From Candidatus Kuenenia stuttgartensis (GTDB taxonomy: Bacteria; Planctomycetota; UBA11346), in assembly GCA_945872305.1 (NCBI GenBank), contig CAMCAC010000007.1:1-32922 (forward strand): a stretch of DNA of 32,922 nt, read 5' to 3'. This document shows positions 9,602 to 25,961 of the stretch, piece after piece. The notes beneath the pieces are model-generated. The model saw only the letters and a list, made by a program, of their open reading frames with translations. It was not told the DNA's origin and did not search any database. Made by a program: the position numbers and the translations under genes. Numbering within the stretch: the first letter of the stretch is position 1; each line of letters opens with the position of its first letter.

Positions 9602-12211
9602 TCAGGGCAGCGGGGTCGCGGTCTCCGTCCGCCGCCGGGCGATCTGGCGGACGGCGGTCATGGACGAGGAAGACCCGTCATCCCGCTCGCCGGACATGGC
9701 CCCGGACAGGGCGCGCCCGAGCTGGCCCCGGTCGAAGGGCTTGGCCAGGAACCGGGTATGGCCGTCGGTCAGCTCGGTGGTGAGGTCCGCCGAGGTGAGC
9801 ATCCCGCTGATCAGGACCACCGGCAGACGGGAACCACGGTCACGCAGGCGGCGGAGCAGGGCCAAGCCGCTCGCTCCGGGCATGCGGTCATCAAGCACCG
9901 CTGCCAGCAATGGCTGATCGAGCATCCCCGTGGCGGTGGTGCCATCGACTGCGAGGACGACCCGGTAGCCCAGGCTGCGCAGCAGGTCCGCGGTGGCCTC
10001 GCGCATCAGGTCCTCGTCATCGGCGACCAGGATCGGGAGGTCCTGGCCACTGCTCGGCGACCGCCGTTCGATCCGGGTGGTCGCCGGCCGCGGAGGGGCT
10101 ACCGGCAGGCTGACCGCAAAGGTGGTTCCGTTCCCCGGCCGGGACCGGCACTGGATGGAACCGCCCCGCTCGCGGACGATCCCATGCACCGCCGCAAGCC
10201 CCAACCCATGGCCCTTGGGCTTGGTCGTGAAGTAGGGGTCAAACATCCGTGCCTGGGTTTCGGGATCCATGCCGCAGCCATGGTCGGTCACATCGATGAG
10301 CAGGTGGTTGCCGTGGGGACGCACGGTGATGTCGACCACCCCGGGGCGGCCTTCATAGGCCTCGGCGGCATTGATGATCAGGTTCATGGCCACCTGATGG
10401 AATTGCGAGATGTCGAAGGTGATGCGCGGCAGGTCGGGGGCGAGATCGAGGCGGAGCTCCACCCCCCGGGGCAGCGACGGCGCCAAGAGGTCCTGGAGCG
10501 AGGCCAGCTCGCGCCCGGGATCCAGATCGCGCAGCTCGATCCGGCCACGGCCGGTGTAGGCGAGCAGCTGGCGGACCAGGCCGGCGGCCCGGTCGACGCC
10601 CTCGATGGCCCGGGTGCAGCGCCGTTGCGCCGTTTCCTCGGTGATGGCGGTGCGCACCAGTTCGACCTGGCCGCGGATCGCCCCGAGCAGGTTGTTGAAG
10701 TCGTGGGCGATCCCCCCGGCGAGCAGTCCCAGGCTTTCATGCCGGCGGGCCTGGGTCAGCTCCTCGCTCAGCCGGCGGCGGTCGTCCTCGGCCTCGTTCT
10801 CGGCGCTCACGTCGATGAGGATGCCGTCCCAGGCCTGGGTCTCGCCTTCGTCGTTGCGATGGGCATGGAGGAGCACCGTCGTGATCTGCCCGTCCGGGCG
10901 GGACAGGCGCAGCCTGACCCGGATCGGGTCGCCCAGGCGGCGGGATCCGGCGACCGCCTCGGCAAATGCCGGGCGGTCGGCATCGACGATGACCTCGGTC
11001 AGGCGGCTCGGATCCTCGGCGAACCAGGTGAGCGTGCGTCCGGTCAGGTCCTGGATCGATGGGCTGGCCACCTCCAGGCGCAGGTCGTGGGCCCCGCTCG
11101 CGGTGGCCCGGAGCAGGGCGAACCCCTGGGCCATGTCGACCAGGCCGCGGTAATGACGGCGGCTGCGGCGCAGGGTGTTGAGCTGGGTCCTGGTCACCAG
11201 GATCAGCATGGTGGTGGCGAGCAGGGCCGCCCCCAGGCAGACGAGCAGGATGCGCGCGAGCTGGGCCTGATGATCCGGGGGCGCCCACACCTGGTCCCGA
11301 TCCAGGTGCCCGGGCAGGTCGGCGGCACGCATGAGCGCGGCCGAGGATTCCAGACGGTCGTAATCCACCGCGCCGATGGGGAAACGGTCGGGGTCGATGT
11401 GTTCGATGACCACCCGCGCCTCGGCCAAGAGGTGGTCCCGGTCGAGCCCATGCGCTGGGCCATCGAACCGGGTCAGGATCAGATCGATGATCCGGCCAGG
11501 ATCGCGCACGGCGGTGGTCCACCCCTCCAGGGTCGCGGCGCGGAATGCGTCCATGGTCGGCCGGTCCTCGCGCCAGCGTCGGCCAGAGACCACCAGCAGC
11601 GTGCCGGGAAACGCGAAGGGCCGCTCGGTCAGGGACAGTTCCCGCACCGGCACGCCCCAGGACTGGAGGACCAGGGGTTCATTGGCGCGGAAGGAGGGGA
11701 GCACCGCAATCTCGCCGCGGGCGAACCGCTCCAGGTCGTCGGGCCGCTTGCTGCGCGGGAATATCCGCTCCGGCATCAGGCCGGCCAGGCGCAGGCCGGT
11801 CCACAAGGAGGCATCGACGCCATTGGCCGGGCCGACCAGCCGGTCCGCCGGCTGGTCGGCAAGATCGCGCAGGGACTGGATCGGACCCTGGGCGTGGACG
11901 AGCAGGCAGAACGGATTGCGCTGCTGGATCTGGGCGAGGATCGCGAGATCCGCACCGCGTCCAAGGTCGATGAGCACCTCGCCCGCGGTCACCGTGGCGT
12001 CGGCGGTGCCGCGGACCACCCCGTCCACCGCCCGCAGCCCTGGTTGCCACGGGATCAGTTCGACCTTCAGGTCGTGACGGGCGTAGATCCCATCCGCCAC
12101 CGCGGCATAGAAGCCCGCGTGGGCGAACTGCGGATGGTACGGCAGTTGCACGCGGATGGGATCCGCGGCGGCAGCCACGGTCACGGCGAGAAGAAGGACG
12201 CACCAACGCAC
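9602..12211 (-). CDS. Hybrid sensor histidine kinase: N-terminal NMT1/THI5-like periplasmic domain, TM, PAS-like, HisKA/HATPase, C-terminal receiver
   Basis: Signal peptide then IRVQLPYHPQFAHAGFYAAVADGIYARHDLKVELIPW (NMT1-like); TM ILLVCLGAALLATTMLILV; H box GGIAHDFNNLLGAIRGQVELV; N box NLIINAAEA; G boxes DHGCGMDPET / GHGLGLAAVHGI; receiver ILVADDEDLM...VLDDRMPGASG...FLAKPF. Confidence 0.92.
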   Translation of the reverse strand: MRWCVLLLAVTVAAAADPIRVQLPYHPQFAHAGFYAAVADGIYARHDLKVELIPWQPGLRAVDGVVRGTADATVTAGEVLIDLGRGADLAILAQIQQRNPFCLLVHAQGPIQSLRDLADQPADRLVGPANGVDASLWTGLRLAGLMPERIFPRSKRPDDLERFARGEIAVLPSFRANEPLVLQSWGVPVRELSLTERPFAFPGTLLVVSGRRWREDRPTMDAFRAATLEGWTTAVRDPGRIIDLILTRFDGPAHGLDRDHLLAEARVVIEHIDPDRFPIGAVDYDRLESSAALMRAADLPGHLDRDQVWAPPDHQAQLARILLVCLGAALLATTMLILVTRTQLNTLRRSRRHYRGLVDMAQGFALLRATASGAHDLRLEVASPSIQDLTGRTLTWFAEDPSRLTEVIVDADRPAFAEAVAGSRRLGDPIRVRLRLSRPDGQITTVLLHAHRNDEGETQAWDGILIDVSAENEAEDDRRRLSEELTQARRHESLGLLAGGIAHDFNNLLGAIRGQVELVRTAITEETAQRRCTRAIEGVDRAAGLVRQLLAYTGRGRIELRDLDPGRELASLQDLLAPSLPRGVELRLDLAPDLPRITFDISQFHQVAMNLIINAAEAYEGRPGVVDITVRPHGNHLLIDVTDHGCGMDPETQARMFDPYFTTKPKGHGLGLAAVHGIVRERGGSIQCRSRPGNGTTFAVSLPVAPPRPATTRIERRSPSSGQDLPILVADDEDLMREATADLLRSLGYRVVLAVDGTTATGMLDQPLLAAVLDDRMPGASGLALLRRLRDRGSRLPVVLISGMLTSADLTTELTDGHTRFLAKPFDRGQLGRALSGAMSGERDDGSSSSMTAVRQIARRRTETATPLP

Positions 12212-18270: not shown

Positions 18271-20160
18271 TCACCGCACCAACTGATCCCAGCCCACCGG
18301 ACAGACCGGAGGCTCGGTGCTGAGCAGACCGCCCAGGGTGGGATCCGGCAGGGTGATGCGGATCCGCACCAGCCGGCCATCGGCGACCTGGACCGGGAGA
18401 TTCTCAACCGGGGCCGCGGAGCCGACGGCGGCACAGGGCCACTCGGGCAGGACCGGTTCGACAGTCGCGTCGGCCACCACAGTGCCGGGGGGATACAGGA
18501 GGACGAACGAACGGTCCGCGAGCCGGCGCACGAGCAGGCCGGAAGCCCCACCGATGCGCACCGGCACATGGAGGAGGATCTCGGTGCCCTGGACCAGCCC
18601 GCGCACGCTGAAGACCTCGACCGGTTCGGCCTTGTTGCGGGCGACCAGGGGCGGCATGCGCACGCCGAACGCACCGTTGGCCGCGTCCCAAGTGGCTCGC
18701 GAGGCGAGCACCTGGCCGGCCATCGCGGCATGCTCGATCCGCGAGGCGGTATTCACCGTGTCGCCGAGCAGGGTGTAGCTGATGGTGCTCGCCTGGGATC
18801 CGATGTTGCCGGCGACCACCGCGCCGGTGTTCAGGCCGATGCCGTGCGCGAGGGGCGATTCGCCGGCGGCCTGGCGCTCGCTGTTGAAGCCGACCAGCAG
18901 GGTCTGCATGGCGAGGGCCGAGGCGATGCCGGAACGGGCGTGGTCGGCGGCGCCCTCCTTTTCCGGCGGGATCCCCCAGAAGGCCATGATCGCATCGCCG
19001 ATGAACTTGTCGATGGCGCCGCCATCGTTCTGCACGGCGCGGACCATGCTGTCGAAATAGGCGTTCATCACCGCGATGACCTGCTCGGGGGTCAGCCGCT
19101 CGGACATGGCGGTGAAGCCGATCACATCGCTGAACAGGACCGTGCCCTGGTATGACCTGCCGCCGAGACCGACATCGATGGCGCCGCTGCGGGCCTGTTC
19201 GGCCAGGGGGCCGGGCAGGAAGCGCAGCAGGTTGGTGCGCATCGCCGCATCGCGCTCGGTCTTCTGCAGGAGGAAGGCGTTGTGCAGGGCGATGGCGGCC
19301 TGGCTGGCCACCGCGGCGGCCAGGGCGAGGTCATCCTTCGTGAACGCCCGGCGGGCGTCAGTGGTGTCGATCTGGAGCACGCCCAGGGGCTCGTCGCCGG
19401 CGACCAGGGCGACCGCCATGGCGTGGCGGATCGACAGACCGACCAGGGACATGCCGGCGGCGAAGTCGGCGCCGCCGCCTTCCTGCCAGAGCACGGCCCC
19501 GAGCTTGGCCAGGGCGTTGGCGCACAGGCTGCGGGAGGCGGTCGGCGGCGGGCCGCCGGGCTTGCGCTCCTTGACCGCCCGGGGGACCATGGCCTCGGGG
19601 TCCTTGCCGAGCATGAGGAAGCCGCGGTCGGCCTGGGGGAAGACCTCGAACAACGCGCTCAGGATCTCGGCAAGCACCGCGTCGATCTGATCGATCCGGA
19701 CCAGGGCCGTGGACACCCGTTGGATGGCATTGAGACGGGCCCGCAGGGCGTCGGGATCCAAGACCTGGTCCCGGGCCTCGTCCATGGACATGACCAGGCT
19801 GGCGCCCAGATCGCCCTCTGCCGCATCGCGGAAGGCGAAGATCGAGGAATTGCCGCCGTCATCCTTCTGGGCACCGTGGGTGACCACCTTCAGCTTGGTC
19901 TCGCCCAGCCGCACCACGTCGTTGGCGCGCAGGACCGTGGGTGCCGCAATGCGCGTCTCGTTGACGAAGGTGCCGTTGGCCGAGCGGTTGTCGGCCACCG
20001 TCAGGTGGGTGCCATCGAAGATGAAGTGGGCATGCTGGCGGCTGGCGTTCGGATCAGGGACCTCAAGTCCGCAATCGGGGCTGCGCCCGCTGACGAACGG
20101 GCCGTTGACCCGGAAGGGTTCGCCGGCGCGCGGCCCGTTGATGAAGACCAGTTCGTACAC
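18271..20160 (-). CDS. FHA - GAF - class III adenylate/guanylate cyclase with extra C-terminal domain
   Basis: FHA: VSGRSPDCGLEVPDPNASRQHAHFIFDGTHLTVADNRSANGTFVNE; GAF-like middle; cyclase: VLFSDVIGFTAMSERLTPEQVIAVMNAYFDSM, DKFIGDAIMAFWG, GIGLNTGAVVAGNIGS, YTLLGDTVNTASRIE. Confidence 0.93.
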   Translation of the reverse strand: MYELVFINGPRAGEPFRVNGPFVSGRSPDCGLEVPDPNASRQHAHFIFDGTHLTVADNRSANGTFVNETRIAAPTVLRANDVVRLGETKLKVVTHGAQKDDGGNSSIFAFRDAAEGDLGASLVMSMDEARDQVLDPDALRARLNAIQRVSTALVRIDQIDAVLAEILSALFEVFPQADRGFLMLGKDPEAMVPRAVKERKPGGPPPTASRSLCANALAKLGAVLWQEGGGADFAAGMSLVGLSIRHAMAVALVAGDEPLGVLQIDTTDARRAFTKDDLALAAAVASQAAIALHNAFLLQKTERDAAMRTNLLRFLPGPLAEQARSGAIDVGLGGRSYQGTVLFSDVIGFTAMSERLTPEQVIAVMNAYFDSMVRAVQNDGGAIDKFIGDAIMAFWGIPPEKEGAADHARSGIASALAMQTLLVGFNSERQAAGESPLAHGIGLNTGAVVAGNIGSQASTISYTLLGDTVNTASRIEHAAMAGQVLASRATWDAANGAFGVRMPPLVARNKAEPVEVFSVRGLVQGTEILLHVPVRIGGASGLLVRRLADRSFVLLYPPGTVVADATVEPVLPEWPCAAVGSAAPVENLPVQVADGRLVRIRITLPDPTLGGLLSTEPPVCPVGWDQLVR

Positions 20161-20822: not shown

Positions 20823-22256
<1,434 letters not shown>

Positions 22257-22402
22257 GGCCATGGCAGGGTACCCGCAACGGCGTGGGGCGTAAAGGGCGG
22301 GCGCGCACATGCCCCCCAGCCGGCCGGTGCATGGCCGTCGAGGGCTGGCCCGGTCCGGGTTGACGGTGGCGCAAGCCCGCACAATGCCCCGCGGGAGAAC
22401 CC

Positions 22403-24028
22403 ATGCCGCTCTTCATTCTCGGACTCATCGCCGCCCTCGTGGCGGTGGTCCTGCTCGCCGCCCCGTCCATGATGCGCGAGCGCGCCCTTGGCATCCTCGC
22501 CGGAATCGCCGGCCTGCTGCTCTCAGCGGTCCTCATCGGCTTCTCGTCCGCAGTGAGCGTGGATGACAACCAGCGGGCGGTGGTCATCCGCACCTTCGGC
22601 GAATCGATGCCCCAGGGTCGTGTCGTCGCCCTCGACGGCCAGGCCGGCGCCCAGGCCCGGCTCCTCGGCCCCGGCTGGCACTTCGGCTACTGGCCCTGGA
22701 TGTACGAGTTCGAGGTCGTGCCCACGGTGACTATCGACCAGGGCAAGGTGGGCGTGCTCACCGCCCTCGACGGCCGTCCCCTGCCCGAGGGCCAGGTCTT
22801 CGCCCCCGCCTGGTCGTCGGCCAACGACATGCTCGACGGCGACCGCTTCCTTGCTCCGGACGGCGGCTTCAAGGGTCCCCAGGCCACGGTCCTGACCCCC
22901 GGCAGCTATCCGTTCAATCCCAAGCTGTTCCGCATCGACCAGGTCCCCGCGACCCTGGTCAATGTCGGCGAGGTGGCGGTGATCAAGGCGAACGCCGGAC
23001 CCGAGTGGAAGCCCGGTGCCGAGGAGAAGATCATCGAGATCAACGGCACCCGCCTGGTGCCCAACGGCAACCAGGGCATCTGGAAGACCGCCCTCGCGCC
23101 CGGCCTTTACAATCTGCATCCGGGCCTGTTCCAAGTGACCAAGGTGCAGACCACCAACCGGGTCTACACCTACCAGGATGACAAGTGGGCGATCAAGGTC
23201 CGTTCCCGGGACGGCTTCACATTCCCGGTGGATGTGCGTGTCGGCGTCACCGTGACCGCCGACCAGGCGCCCTTCCTGGTCGCCATGCTCGGCAACCCGG
23301 ACCTGCTGCAGAAGGACGAGCAGGAGGACGAGCCCCTGTCGCGCATCGAATCCAAGATCATCCTGCCACTCATCCGCACCCACTTCCGCAATGTGGCGGA
23401 GACGATGAATGCGCTCCAGTTCATGAACTCCCGCACCCAGGTCGAATCCGATGTCAGCCGGCGCATGCGCGACGAGCTGGCCAAATACCGGTTGGAGACC
23501 GACGGCGTGTTCATCGGCCAGATCGAGCTCGACGCGACCCCCGAGGGCAAGACCCTTCTCGCCACCCAGACCGACCGCGAGGTCGCCCTGAACCAGCAGA
23601 AGACCTTTGAAGAGAAGAAGCGCGCCGAGGAGAGCCGGGCCACCTTCATCAAGGCGCAGGAAGAGGCGGAGCAGCAGCGCAAGGTCGTCGCCGCCACGTA
23701 CCAGGTCCAGGTCCGCGAGCAGGAAGGCAAGGCCTTCGAGATCGCCGCCAGCTACACCGTGAAGGTCAAGGAGCAGGAGGCCAAGGCCCGCGAGGCCGAG
23801 GCGCGCGGCGAGGCGAGCTTCATCGAGATCACCTCGGCGGCGAAGCGGAAGGCCTACGCCGACATCTCCGCCGCCATCGGACCCCAGGGCCTGGTCACCA
23901 TCGAGGCCCTGCGGCTGGTCGGCGAGAACAAGATCCAGATCACCCCGCAGGTGATGGTCGGCTCCGGTGGCAGCGCCCTGGATGCCCTGGCCGGGACCAT
24001 CCTGGGCCGCGGAGTGGAAAAGAAGTAG
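22403..24028 (+). CDS. SPFH (band 7/flotillin-like) membrane protein with repeated N-terminal modules and coiled coil
   Basis: N-terminal TM segments; [32 protein letters not shown]...; coiled-coil [33 protein letters not shown]...; [25 protein letters not shown]. Confidence 0.85.
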
Positions 24029-24032
24029 CCGT

Positions 24033-25961
24033 TCACCCCCGGCACCGTCCGGCCCAGGCTGCGATCAATCGGCGCAGGTCCTCGGGTCGGTACGGCTTGG
24101 CGAGCAGGTCGTCCATCCCGCTTGCGGAGCAACGGTCGCGTTCCTCGGCCATGGCGCTGGCGGTCAGGGCGACGATCGGCACCTGCCCGCCGGCGGCCCG
24201 GATCCGCCGGGTCGCTTCGTAGCCGTCCATCACGGGCATCAGGCAGTCCATCAGGATCAGGTCGAACCCGCCTGCGGACCAGGCATCCACCGCCTGCTGC
24301 CCGTCCTCGGCGACGACCACCACGTGCCCGGCGCGACTGAGCACGGTCGTGGCCAGACGCTGATTCACCGGGTGGTCCTCGGCGACCAGGATGCGCAGCC
24401 GGGTACCATCCGCGGTCGGCGCGTGCGGCCCGACCGGCCTGCCCCCGGCGGAGGGGAGCAGGGCGACCAGGCCCTGGGCCAGGCGGTGGGGGTCCGTCGG
24501 CAGCAAGAGCACATCATCCCCGGACCGCAACGCAGGTCGCCGACCCGGCCGGATCAGATGCAGCGTCGGCAACTGCGAGGATTCGCCGGCGCAGGCGATG
24601 ACCAGATCGGCATCATCGGTGGCAAGGATGCCCCACCGCACCAGGTGGCGTCGTGCCCAGGCCGCGTCGGGTCCGTCCCCCGGTACGGCAACCCGCCGTC
24701 CGGCCAGCCCCGCCGGCAGGGCATGTGGCTGGCCGGCTGCGATCTGTGGCAGGTCGACCGTGAAGCGTGAACCCTGCCCGGGGGTCGAGGCGACGGTGAT
24801 GTCACCCCCGAGGGCCTGGGCCAGGCGACGGGAGATGGCGAGCCCGAGACCGGTGCCGCCGAACCTGCGGACGGTGCTGGCCTCGGCCTGGACGAAGGGT
24901 TGGAACAGGCGCTCAAGCACTGCGGGTTCGATGCCCACACCCGTATCCTCGATCGAGAAGCGCAGTCGACCCTGCGCGGCCGAGGCGCGCAGGGACACAG
25001 ATCCGTCATCGGTGAATTTCACGGCATTGGCCACCAGGTTGACCAGCACCTGGCGCAGACGGGCTGGATCCCCCTCGATGCTGCCAGGCAGATCATCATC
25101 CTGATCGATGGTCAGAAGCAGGCCCTTCTCGACGGCCCGTTCGGCAACCATGGCTGCTGCCTCGGCGAGGATCCGCCCCGGGTCGCAGGGGATCGACTCC
25201 AGCGCCATGCTTCCGGCCTCGATCCGCGACATGTCGAGGATGTCGTTGATCAGGGTGAGCAGATTCCCGGCGCTGCCCAGGACCGTGTCGGTGTATTGCC
25301 GCTGCTCGGCGTCGAGGTCGGTTTCCGCAAGCAGACCCGTCATGCCCAGGATGCCGTTGAGCGGAGTGCGCAGCTCGTGGGTCATGGTGGCCAGGAACAT
25401 CCCCTTGGCCTTGGTGGCGTCCTCGGCCGCATCCCGCGCCCGGGCGAGTTCCGCCGTCCGGACCGCGACCTCCTGCTCCAGAGAACGGTTGCGGGTGGCC
25501 AATTCCAGCGCCAGCCGACGATTGTCGGCGGTCAGGGCGATGGCGGCTGCAGCCGGTCCGCAGGCGTCGAATACCATCGCGGCCGGATCCACATCGGGGG
25601 CCAGCTGCACCACCAGCAGCCAGGCGGCCTCGTCGGTGGCTGGGACATGGACCAGCGCCAACCCTTGGTCCACCACCGGTCGCAGCCGACGCAGGGCGGT
25701 GGCGATCATCCCCGCGGTGGTCAGCCGCAGGACGGAGGCGGCAAGGTCCACCGCCGATTCCTCAGGAAGGGGCAGGGTCAGGTCCGGCACGAAATCCGGC
25801 GGCCCAACCCGGACCCAGGCCGAGGCGGTGGACGGGGGAAGCAGGCTCAGCAGATGCAGGCGCCCGCGTTCAAGCACCTCCGCCGGGGTCGCATCGGAAC
25901 CGAGCCGGGCGAGATCCGCCTGGAGGTTCGAAAGCGCATCGGCAAGGTCGCCCGGGGTCAT
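24033..25961 (-). CDS. Cytoplasmic hybrid histidine kinase with C-terminal receiver (and probable degenerate receiver in between)
   Basis: H box [29 protein letters not shown] box [14 protein letters not shown] box [15 protein letters not shown] / [14 protein letters not shown]; receiver [24 protein letters not shown]...[22 protein letters not shown]...LAKPY. Confidence 0.94.

What the first reader, a model, noticed from the sequence alone, without database searches (positions are those of the whole stretch)
22556..23155. SPFH protein with three related N-terminal modules, reminiscent of vault-protein repeat architecture
Upstream of the SPFH core, the translation shows a recurring pattern of a short beta strand after a turn (AVVIRTFGE / VGVLTALDG / VAVIKANAG), a variable insert, then a loop-strand unit ([22 protein letters not shown] / [21 protein letters not shown] / [21 protein letters not shown]). 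Approximate units are aa 52-110, 111-184 and 185-251. Units 2 and 3 are the clearest pair. Tandem small beta-modules before an SPFH-like domain and a long coiled coil is also the general layout of eukaryotic major vault protein (established knowledge); any relationship here is inference.
Basis: partly seen in the sequence, partly recalled or inferred. Interest (0 to 1): 0.6.

Follow-up and report, generated by a model that had tools for sequence, protein, structure and literature searches.

The report
Membrane SPFH protein with stacked beta-modules
This planctomycete gene makes a membrane-anchored cage-forming (SPFH) protein whose front part carries three real copies of one small beta-module, a layout resembling the vault of complex cells; the module looks like a copied piece of the protein's own SPFH domain, and whether it is related to vault repeats is unproven.

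Summary
An HMM built only from distant relatives finds all three (E 5e-17, 6e-22, 9e-13), and profile comparison pairs modules 1-2 and 2-3. Relatives were found in 71 of 294 Planctomycetota genomes and in phages; among those read, copy number is 3, 4 (one clade) or 5. The modules come from the SPFH fold itself: modules 1-2 alone match only Pfam Band_7, positions 2-44, and module 3 is the front lobe of this protein's SPFH domain. Canonical SPFH proteins of related genomes carry no such array. A membrane anchor precedes the array; charge patterns place the modules outside the cytoplasm.

The vault comparison is partly supported. The full-length model matches major vault protein (E ~2e-9, 564-610 columns). 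A module-only model ranks vault chains first, but not significantly. No Pfam vault model matches and profile comparison fails, although it also misses the known SPFH core of MVP, so it has little power.

Best reading: a new variant of membrane-anchored SPFH cage, heightened by duplicated lobes; not a vault protein by membership. Common descent of the two repeat arrays is open.

The parts
22403..24028 (+). ORF of the SPFH protein, 541 aa (stop codon included); Shine-Dalgarno-like GGGAG at about 22393-22397
   Evidence: the start aligns with the starts of relatives; upstream sequence
22406..22546 (+). Membrane anchor: two hydrophobic helices (aa 2-19 and 27-48) joined by a short loop with net positive charge
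   Evidence: AlphaFold helices; hydropathy and charge pattern across relatives
22559..22726 (+). Module 1 (aa 53-108)
   Evidence: module HMM E 3e-21; distant-only HMM E 5e-17
22733..22951 (+). Module 2 (aa 111-183), long subtype with an insert
   Evidence: module HMM E 1e-22; distant-only HMM E 6e-22
22802..22867 (+). Insert in module 2 (about aa 134-155, ...MLDxxxFL...), two short helices in the model; pattern conserved in the family
   Evidence: alignment, model (low confidence at the edges)
22958..23152 (+). Module 3 (aa 186-250), continuous with the SPFH domain: it is that domain's own N-terminal lobe
   Evidence: module HMM E 5e-18; Band_7 match begins inside it, and in relatives L024, L032, L033 covers the last module from profile position 2-6
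23087..23623 (+). SPFH / Band_7 domain match (aa 229-407)
   Evidence: Pfam PF01145, E 2.9e-17
23567..23878 (+). Long helical region, predicted coiled-coil wall of the dome (about aa 389-492)
   Evidence: model helices 389-433 and 443-492, low pLDDT; pattern conserved
23687..23794 (+). Tandem 18-aa (54-bp) duplication in the helix (23687-23740 and 23741-23794), absent from 14 aligned relatives
   Evidence: 72% DNA identity between copies; gap in all other rows of the alignment
23879..24007 (+). Conserved C-terminal tail (GPQGL...ITPQVMV...ALAGTILG), predicted dome cap
   Evidence: alignment

Best explanation
A membrane-anchored SPFH cage protein whose N-terminal SPFH beta-lobe has been duplicated in tandem, giving an array of three lobes (two extra plus the SPFH domain's own). 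Proposed working: the two-helix hairpin anchors each subunit in the inner membrane with the bulk on the outer (periplasmic) side; the SPFH domains and long helices of some two to three dozen subunits join side by side into a ring closed by a helical dome, as in known SPFH complexes; the extra lobes stack as additional beta-ring tiers between membrane and SPFH ring, making a taller enclosed space over a membrane patch, much as MVP repeats lengthen the vault wall. The enclosed space would hold or shield membrane proteins or lipids. Shown: the repeat, its kinship with the SPFH lobe, the ancient fixed copy number, the hydrophobic anchor. Inferred: topology (charge pattern only), oligomer, tiers, cargo role.
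For: Three modules by a non-circular HMM and profile comparison. Modules 1-2 without module 3 or the core hit only Band_7, positions 2-44, among all Pfam models (E 7.3e-4); other fragments from relatives agree, L026 at E 0.0025 and L037 at 0.01, more weakly in others; the tandem module consensus hits Band_7 3-39 three times. Band_7 covers the last module in relatives. No tandem modules in 16 canonical SPFH ORFs of related genomes. Same-position modules are more alike between proteins (0.40-0.45) than different positions within one protein (0.22-0.34), so the array is old and maintained; the 4-module proteins form one clade, 99/98 support. Anchor before module 1 in all relatives with an intact start; positive loop in hairpin types and, in most, a positive N-flank in single-helix types point to modules outside the cytoplasm. 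Solved SPFH relatives at E down to 3e-10 are rings or domes (PMC12624060). No gene is conserved next to it across the 16 planctomycete neighbourhoods and six phage loci compared.
Against: No oligomer was modelled or seen. The AlphaFold model rests on six rows (mean pLDDT 63, most of the C-terminal helix region below 50) and the module-only model is poor (45.6). Topology rests on charge counts alone, and in L032, L033 and L043 the N-flank has no positive charge. Most Band_7 matches of modules without the SPFH core are below Pfam's cut-off. No partner gene points to a function.
Confidence: 0.62

Rival explanations
1. Vault kinship: the module array and the MVP repeats descend from the same duplicated SPFH front lobe, so this family is a membrane-anchored cousin of the vault protein.
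For: Full-length model aligns to MVP over 564-610 columns, E 2.4e-9. Module-only model: MVP is rank 1, 2, 5, 7 and 9-14, including R1-R7 crystals without SPFH. In a phage MVP the last vault repeat (Vault_3, 454-503) sits just before the part of the SPFH fold that Band_7 recognises (507-645 = profile 49-166), the slot that module 3 fills here. MVP shoulder and Band_7 overlap in that protein.
Against: No Pfam Vault hit at E<=10. Profile-profile comparison gives probability below 2%, best score reached by 1 of 80 and 8 of 80 shuffles. Module-only Foldseek E-values are 0.35 or worse from a low-confidence model.
Confidence: 0.3
2. Convergence: MVP and this family each lengthened the wall of an SPFH-type cage with small beta-modules of separate origin; only the SPFH core is shared.
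For: Modules are sequence-related to the SPFH lobe but not detectably to MVP repeats; the layouts differ in anchor and copy number.
Against: MVP, of all solved folds, ranks first for the isolated module model; the comparison fails even for the known SPFH core, so absence of sequence signal says little.
Confidence: 0.4
3. An HflK/HflC-like regulator of the FtsH protease, the extra lobes being a spacer or docking surface.
For: Anchor and predicted periplasmic side as in HflK/C; HflC and prohibitin are among the fold matches; some planctomycetes carry two such genes side by side, like hflK-hflC.
Against: The window's gene is single, with no conserved neighbour; no FtsH link was tested.
Confidence: 0.25
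4. The repeat is an artefact: an ordinary SPFH protein with an unrelated N-terminal extension.
For: Unit 1 vs unit 3 alone is not detectable.
Against: Non-circular HMM, shuffled controls, cleaner repeats and other copy numbers in relatives.
Confidence: 0.02

Closest known systems
SPFH / Band_7 superfamily: stomatin, prohibitin, erlin, HflK/C, QmcA
   Same: Band_7 domain E 2.9e-17; membrane helix before the domain; long helical C-terminal region; structural matches to E 3e-10
   Different: Two extra copies of the N-terminal lobe between anchor and SPFH core; canonical SPFH proteins of related genomes have none
Major vault protein (MVP)
   Same: Tandem small beta-modules, then an SPFH-like (shoulder) domain, then a long helix; model alignment over 564-610 columns
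   Different: Membrane anchor present; three to five modules, not nine; no Pfam Vault or MVP_shoulder hit; no significant profile match to MVP repeats
Phage SPFH proteins (PHROG 200, labelled 'lipoprotein'); Vibrio phages 207E48.1, Kuja, VPALA; a 642-kb phage
   Same: Same module array: three in the Vibrio phages, four in LR756502; tree places them within the family
   Different: Carried by phages; module 1 of the Vibrio phage copies is weaker; role in infection unknown
Prokaryotic SPFH subfamilies SPFH1-SPFH12 (PMC2636767)
   Same: General layout of N-terminal hydrophobic stretch and C-terminal coiled coil
   Different: The passages read describe no tandem N-terminal modules, and no conserved operon partner is found here

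Membership tests
SPFH / Band_7 superfamily | Band_7 (PF01145) domain above the curated cut-off | tested here: met
   63.7 bits against 23.6; all 15 members of A1 match
SPFH / Band_7 superfamily | N-terminal membrane attachment | tested here: met
   two hydrophobic helices, by prediction
SPFH / Band_7 superfamily | long helical, coiled-coil C-terminal region | tested here: met
   model helices 389-492, low confidence
SPFH / Band_7 superfamily | assembly into ring or dome | not testable with these tools
   no multimer prediction or experiment available
Major vault protein | Vault repeat domains (PF01505 and related Pfam models) | tested here: not met
   no hit at E<=10 in 15 family members or selected relatives and fragments
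Major vault protein | MVP_shoulder domain (PF11978) | tested here: not met
   not listed for any member, while a phage MVP scores 1.2e-28
Major vault protein | soluble, no membrane helix (PMC13100048) | tested here: not met
   anchor before module 1 in all relatives with intact start
Major vault protein | nine N-terminal repeats | tested here: not met
   three here; three to five in relatives read
Major vault protein | repeat fold | tested here: inconclusive
   MVP ranks first for the module-only model but E 0.35 or worse and pLDDT 45.6
HflK/HflC (FtsH regulators) | paired adjacent genes | tested here: not met
   single gene in the window; no conserved neighbour; pairs occur in other planctomycete families
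HflK/HflC (FtsH regulators) | binding to FtsH | not testable with these tools
   needs co-purification

The most novel reading that the evidence does not exclude
The vault's repeats and these bacterial modules share one origin, a duplicated front lobe of the SPFH domain, so this family preserves a membrane-anchored intermediate between ordinary SPFH cages and the vault and shows how the vault wall arose.
Probability: 0.28. Interest if true: 0.82.

Novelty: new variant of a known kind. Interest (0 to 1): 0.55.

Why it matters
A 2026 study (PMC13100048) calls the MVP domains unique to the vault and contrasts them with SPFH proteins that have membrane motifs in that place. Here a bacterial and phage family has both: a membrane anchor and a tandem beta-array before the SPFH core, built from the SPFH lobe itself. 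That gives a concrete, testable route by which a vault-like wall could arise, offers variants with three, four or five modules for testing whether copy number sets cage height, and names an apparently undescribed SPFH architecture with relatives in about a quarter of the sampled Planctomycetota genomes. Papers describing it outside the searched library cannot be excluded.

Tried and rejected
Pfam, NCBIfam and Vault-family searches for a named N-terminal domain: none. hhalign of family, module region and pooled module profile against MVP profiles from human, rat and phage sequences: not significant; the same test also misses the known SPFH core, so it has little power. Module-only structure prediction: poor model, matches not significant. 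Full-length search of viral models: mainly ordinary band-7 proteins plus two long Harvfovirus proteins. Operon partner: none conserved in the neighbourhoods compared. Human MVP as query in viral contigs: nothing. Reading the phage copy L027 under TAG=Q does not open the frame; its internal stop is TGA, which table 25 reads as Gly. The ring-size estimate from helix length (regression in PMC12624060, y = 0.1782x + 10.22) gives about 29 subunits for aa 389-492 and about 25 without the 18-aa duplication; the helix limits come from a low-confidence stretch, so this is only a prediction to test.

Full report
WHAT IS THERE. The window lies in a 2.9-Mb, 275-contig draft genome whose named matches are Planctomycetota. 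The finding's coordinates are aa 52-251 of a 541-aa ORF at 22403-24028 on the + strand, with a Shine-Dalgarno-like GGGAG before the ATG. Pfam finds Band_7/SPFH at aa 229-407, E 2.9e-17, and nothing convincing before it; NCBIfam finds nothing. Neighbours on the other strand are a glucose-6-phosphate dehydrogenase (20823-22382) and a hybrid histidine kinase (24033-25961), so the gene stands alone.

THE REPEAT IS REAL. Profile comparison of the three units within the close family gives probability 96.6% (E 5.6e-10) for 1 vs 2 and 95.2% (E 2.6e-8) for 2 vs 3; shuffled columns score at most 20 against 49 and 43; 1 vs 3 is not detected directly. A module HMM gives three full-length domains, 53-108, 111-183 and 186-250. 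Because that model was trained on the same family, a second one was built from 65 modules of distant relatives only: it still finds all three at E 5.3e-17, 6.4e-22 and 8.9e-13, against a best of 11.6 bits in 500 shuffles. The distant consensus is IPPGEVGVVTALVGEPLPSGEIIAEPGQKGVQREVLGPGKYFLNPYAYDVEIVPA. The AlphaFold model repeats the same strand order in each unit. Module 2 carries a conserved helical insert, and similar long modules occur in relatives.

FAMILY. P0001 matches 71 of 294 Planctomycetota genomes at E <= 0.001. Among relatives read, three modules is the rule; L023, L025, L033, L034, L036 and phage L043 have four, L032 five. The tree puts the four-module proteins in one clade (99/98), and same-position modules are more alike between proteins (0.40-0.45) than different positions within a protein (0.22-0.34): the array is ancient and maintained, and the identity table suggests growth by copying the middle type (inference). 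Some families carry two such genes side by side (L024, L026, and near L035, L037, L038, L040). Phages carry it too: Vibrio phages 207E48.1, Kuja and VPALA, a 642-kb phage, and two IMG/VR contigs.

ORIGIN OF THE MODULE. Modules 1-2 alone (window:22550-22957), without module 3 or the core, match one family of all Pfam at E <= 10: Band_7, positions 2-44, E 7.3e-4; L026 (0.0025) and L037 (0.01) fragments agree and others do so more weakly, while L024, L033 and L038 fragments do not. The tandem consensus hits Band_7 3-39 three times, E 1.8e-5, and in L024, L032 and L033 Band_7 starts at or inside the last module. Module 3 is thus the SPFH domain's own front lobe and modules 1-2 are most simply copies of it. 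As a control, 16 canonical SPFH ORFs of related genomes have no tandem modules; one (L088) has a single weak hit where its lobe should be.

TOPOLOGY. All relatives with an intact start have a hydrophobic anchor before module 1. Hairpin types have a loop with more positive than negative charge, apart from L019 (equal), and uncharged N-termini in most; most single-helix types have a positive N-flank. By the positive-inside rule (established knowledge) this places the modules outside the cytoplasm. Exceptions with uninformative flanks are L032, L033 and L043.

HOW IT PROBABLY WORKS. Solved SPFH complexes are domed rings at membranes (PMC12624060). The full-length model matches prohibitin, stomatin, erlin and HflK/C at E 3e-10 to about 1e-8. 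With the modules between anchor and SPFH core, the simplest picture is a taller dome with two extra beta tiers. The assembly, the tiers and any cargo are inferences. No conserved neighbour appears in 16 planctomycete neighbourhoods and six phage loci, several cut short by contig ends.

THE VAULT QUESTION. For: the full-length model aligns to MVP at E 2.4e-9 over 564-610 columns, far longer than to other SPFH proteins, which must include the module region (inference; the output gives no alignment coordinates); the module-only model ranks MVP first and ten of the first fourteen hits are MVP, three being R1-R7 crystals without SPFH; in a phage MVP the last vault repeat sits directly before the Band_7-recognised stretch, the slot of module 3 here. 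Against: module-only E-values are 0.35 or worse from a model with pLDDT 45.6; no Pfam Vault or MVP_shoulder hit; pooled module profile vs MVP is not significant, 1 of 80 and 8 of 80 shuffles reaching the score. That comparison also fails on the SPFH core, where kinship is known, so the negative carries little weight. The search of 246 Planctomycetota genomes for PF01505 was empty, but nothing rang in its controls either. By membership it is not an MVP; by working it may be vault-like.

LITERATURE. PMC13100048 (2026) calls MVP domains unique to the vault and says canonical SPFH proteins have membrane motifs in that place. Bacterial and phage MVP homologues have been reported (cited in PMC13404743: Sokolskyi 2019, Santos 2023); the huge-phage MVPs found here are of that kind and differ from the window's family. 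PMC2636767 divides prokaryotic SPFH proteins into twelve subfamilies; the passages read mention no tandem modules.

VERDICT. Observation confirmed; interpretation partly supported; a new variant of a known kind, with a real but unproven chance of a deeper link to the vault.

Noticed in passing
window 23687-23794: An 18-aa (54-bp) tandem duplication in the long helix, absent from 14 aligned relatives; if helix length sets ring size it would change the subunit number.
   Followed up: partly
L042 1874-4300, L047, L048, L049: True MVP homologues (PF11978 E 1e-28 and Vault_3 in L042) in huge phages of 735 and 462 kb and in two viral contigs.
   Followed up: partly
L027 4001-5605: Phage-contig copy, 47% identical, broken by a single in-frame TGA at a position where close relatives mostly have Gly; table 25 (TGA=Gly) reads through. 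Point change, assembly error or recoding not settled.
   Followed up: partly
L028 4001-5803; L044-L046: Modular SPFH genes in a 223-kb viral contig and in Vibrio phages of 130-163 kb, next to ribonucleotide reductase genes in phage 207E48.1.
   Followed up: partly
L024, L026; near L035, L037, L038, L040: Two modular SPFH genes side by side, like hflK-hflC, in several planctomycete families.
   Followed up: no
PHROG 200: The PHROG family that these proteins match is labelled 'lipoprotein' although the matches cover the SPFH region.
   Followed up: no
BFVD A0A3G5A4K1 and A0A3G5A5B7 (Harvfovirus): Two giant-virus proteins align over about 570 columns with the full-length model, as MVP does, which suggests extra modules there too.
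   Followed up: no
window 18271-20160 (-): FHA + GAF + adenylate/guanylate cyclase fusion protein.
   Followed up: no
window 9602-12211 (-): Hybrid sensor kinase with an NMT1/THI5-type binding domain and PAS domain.
   Followed up: no
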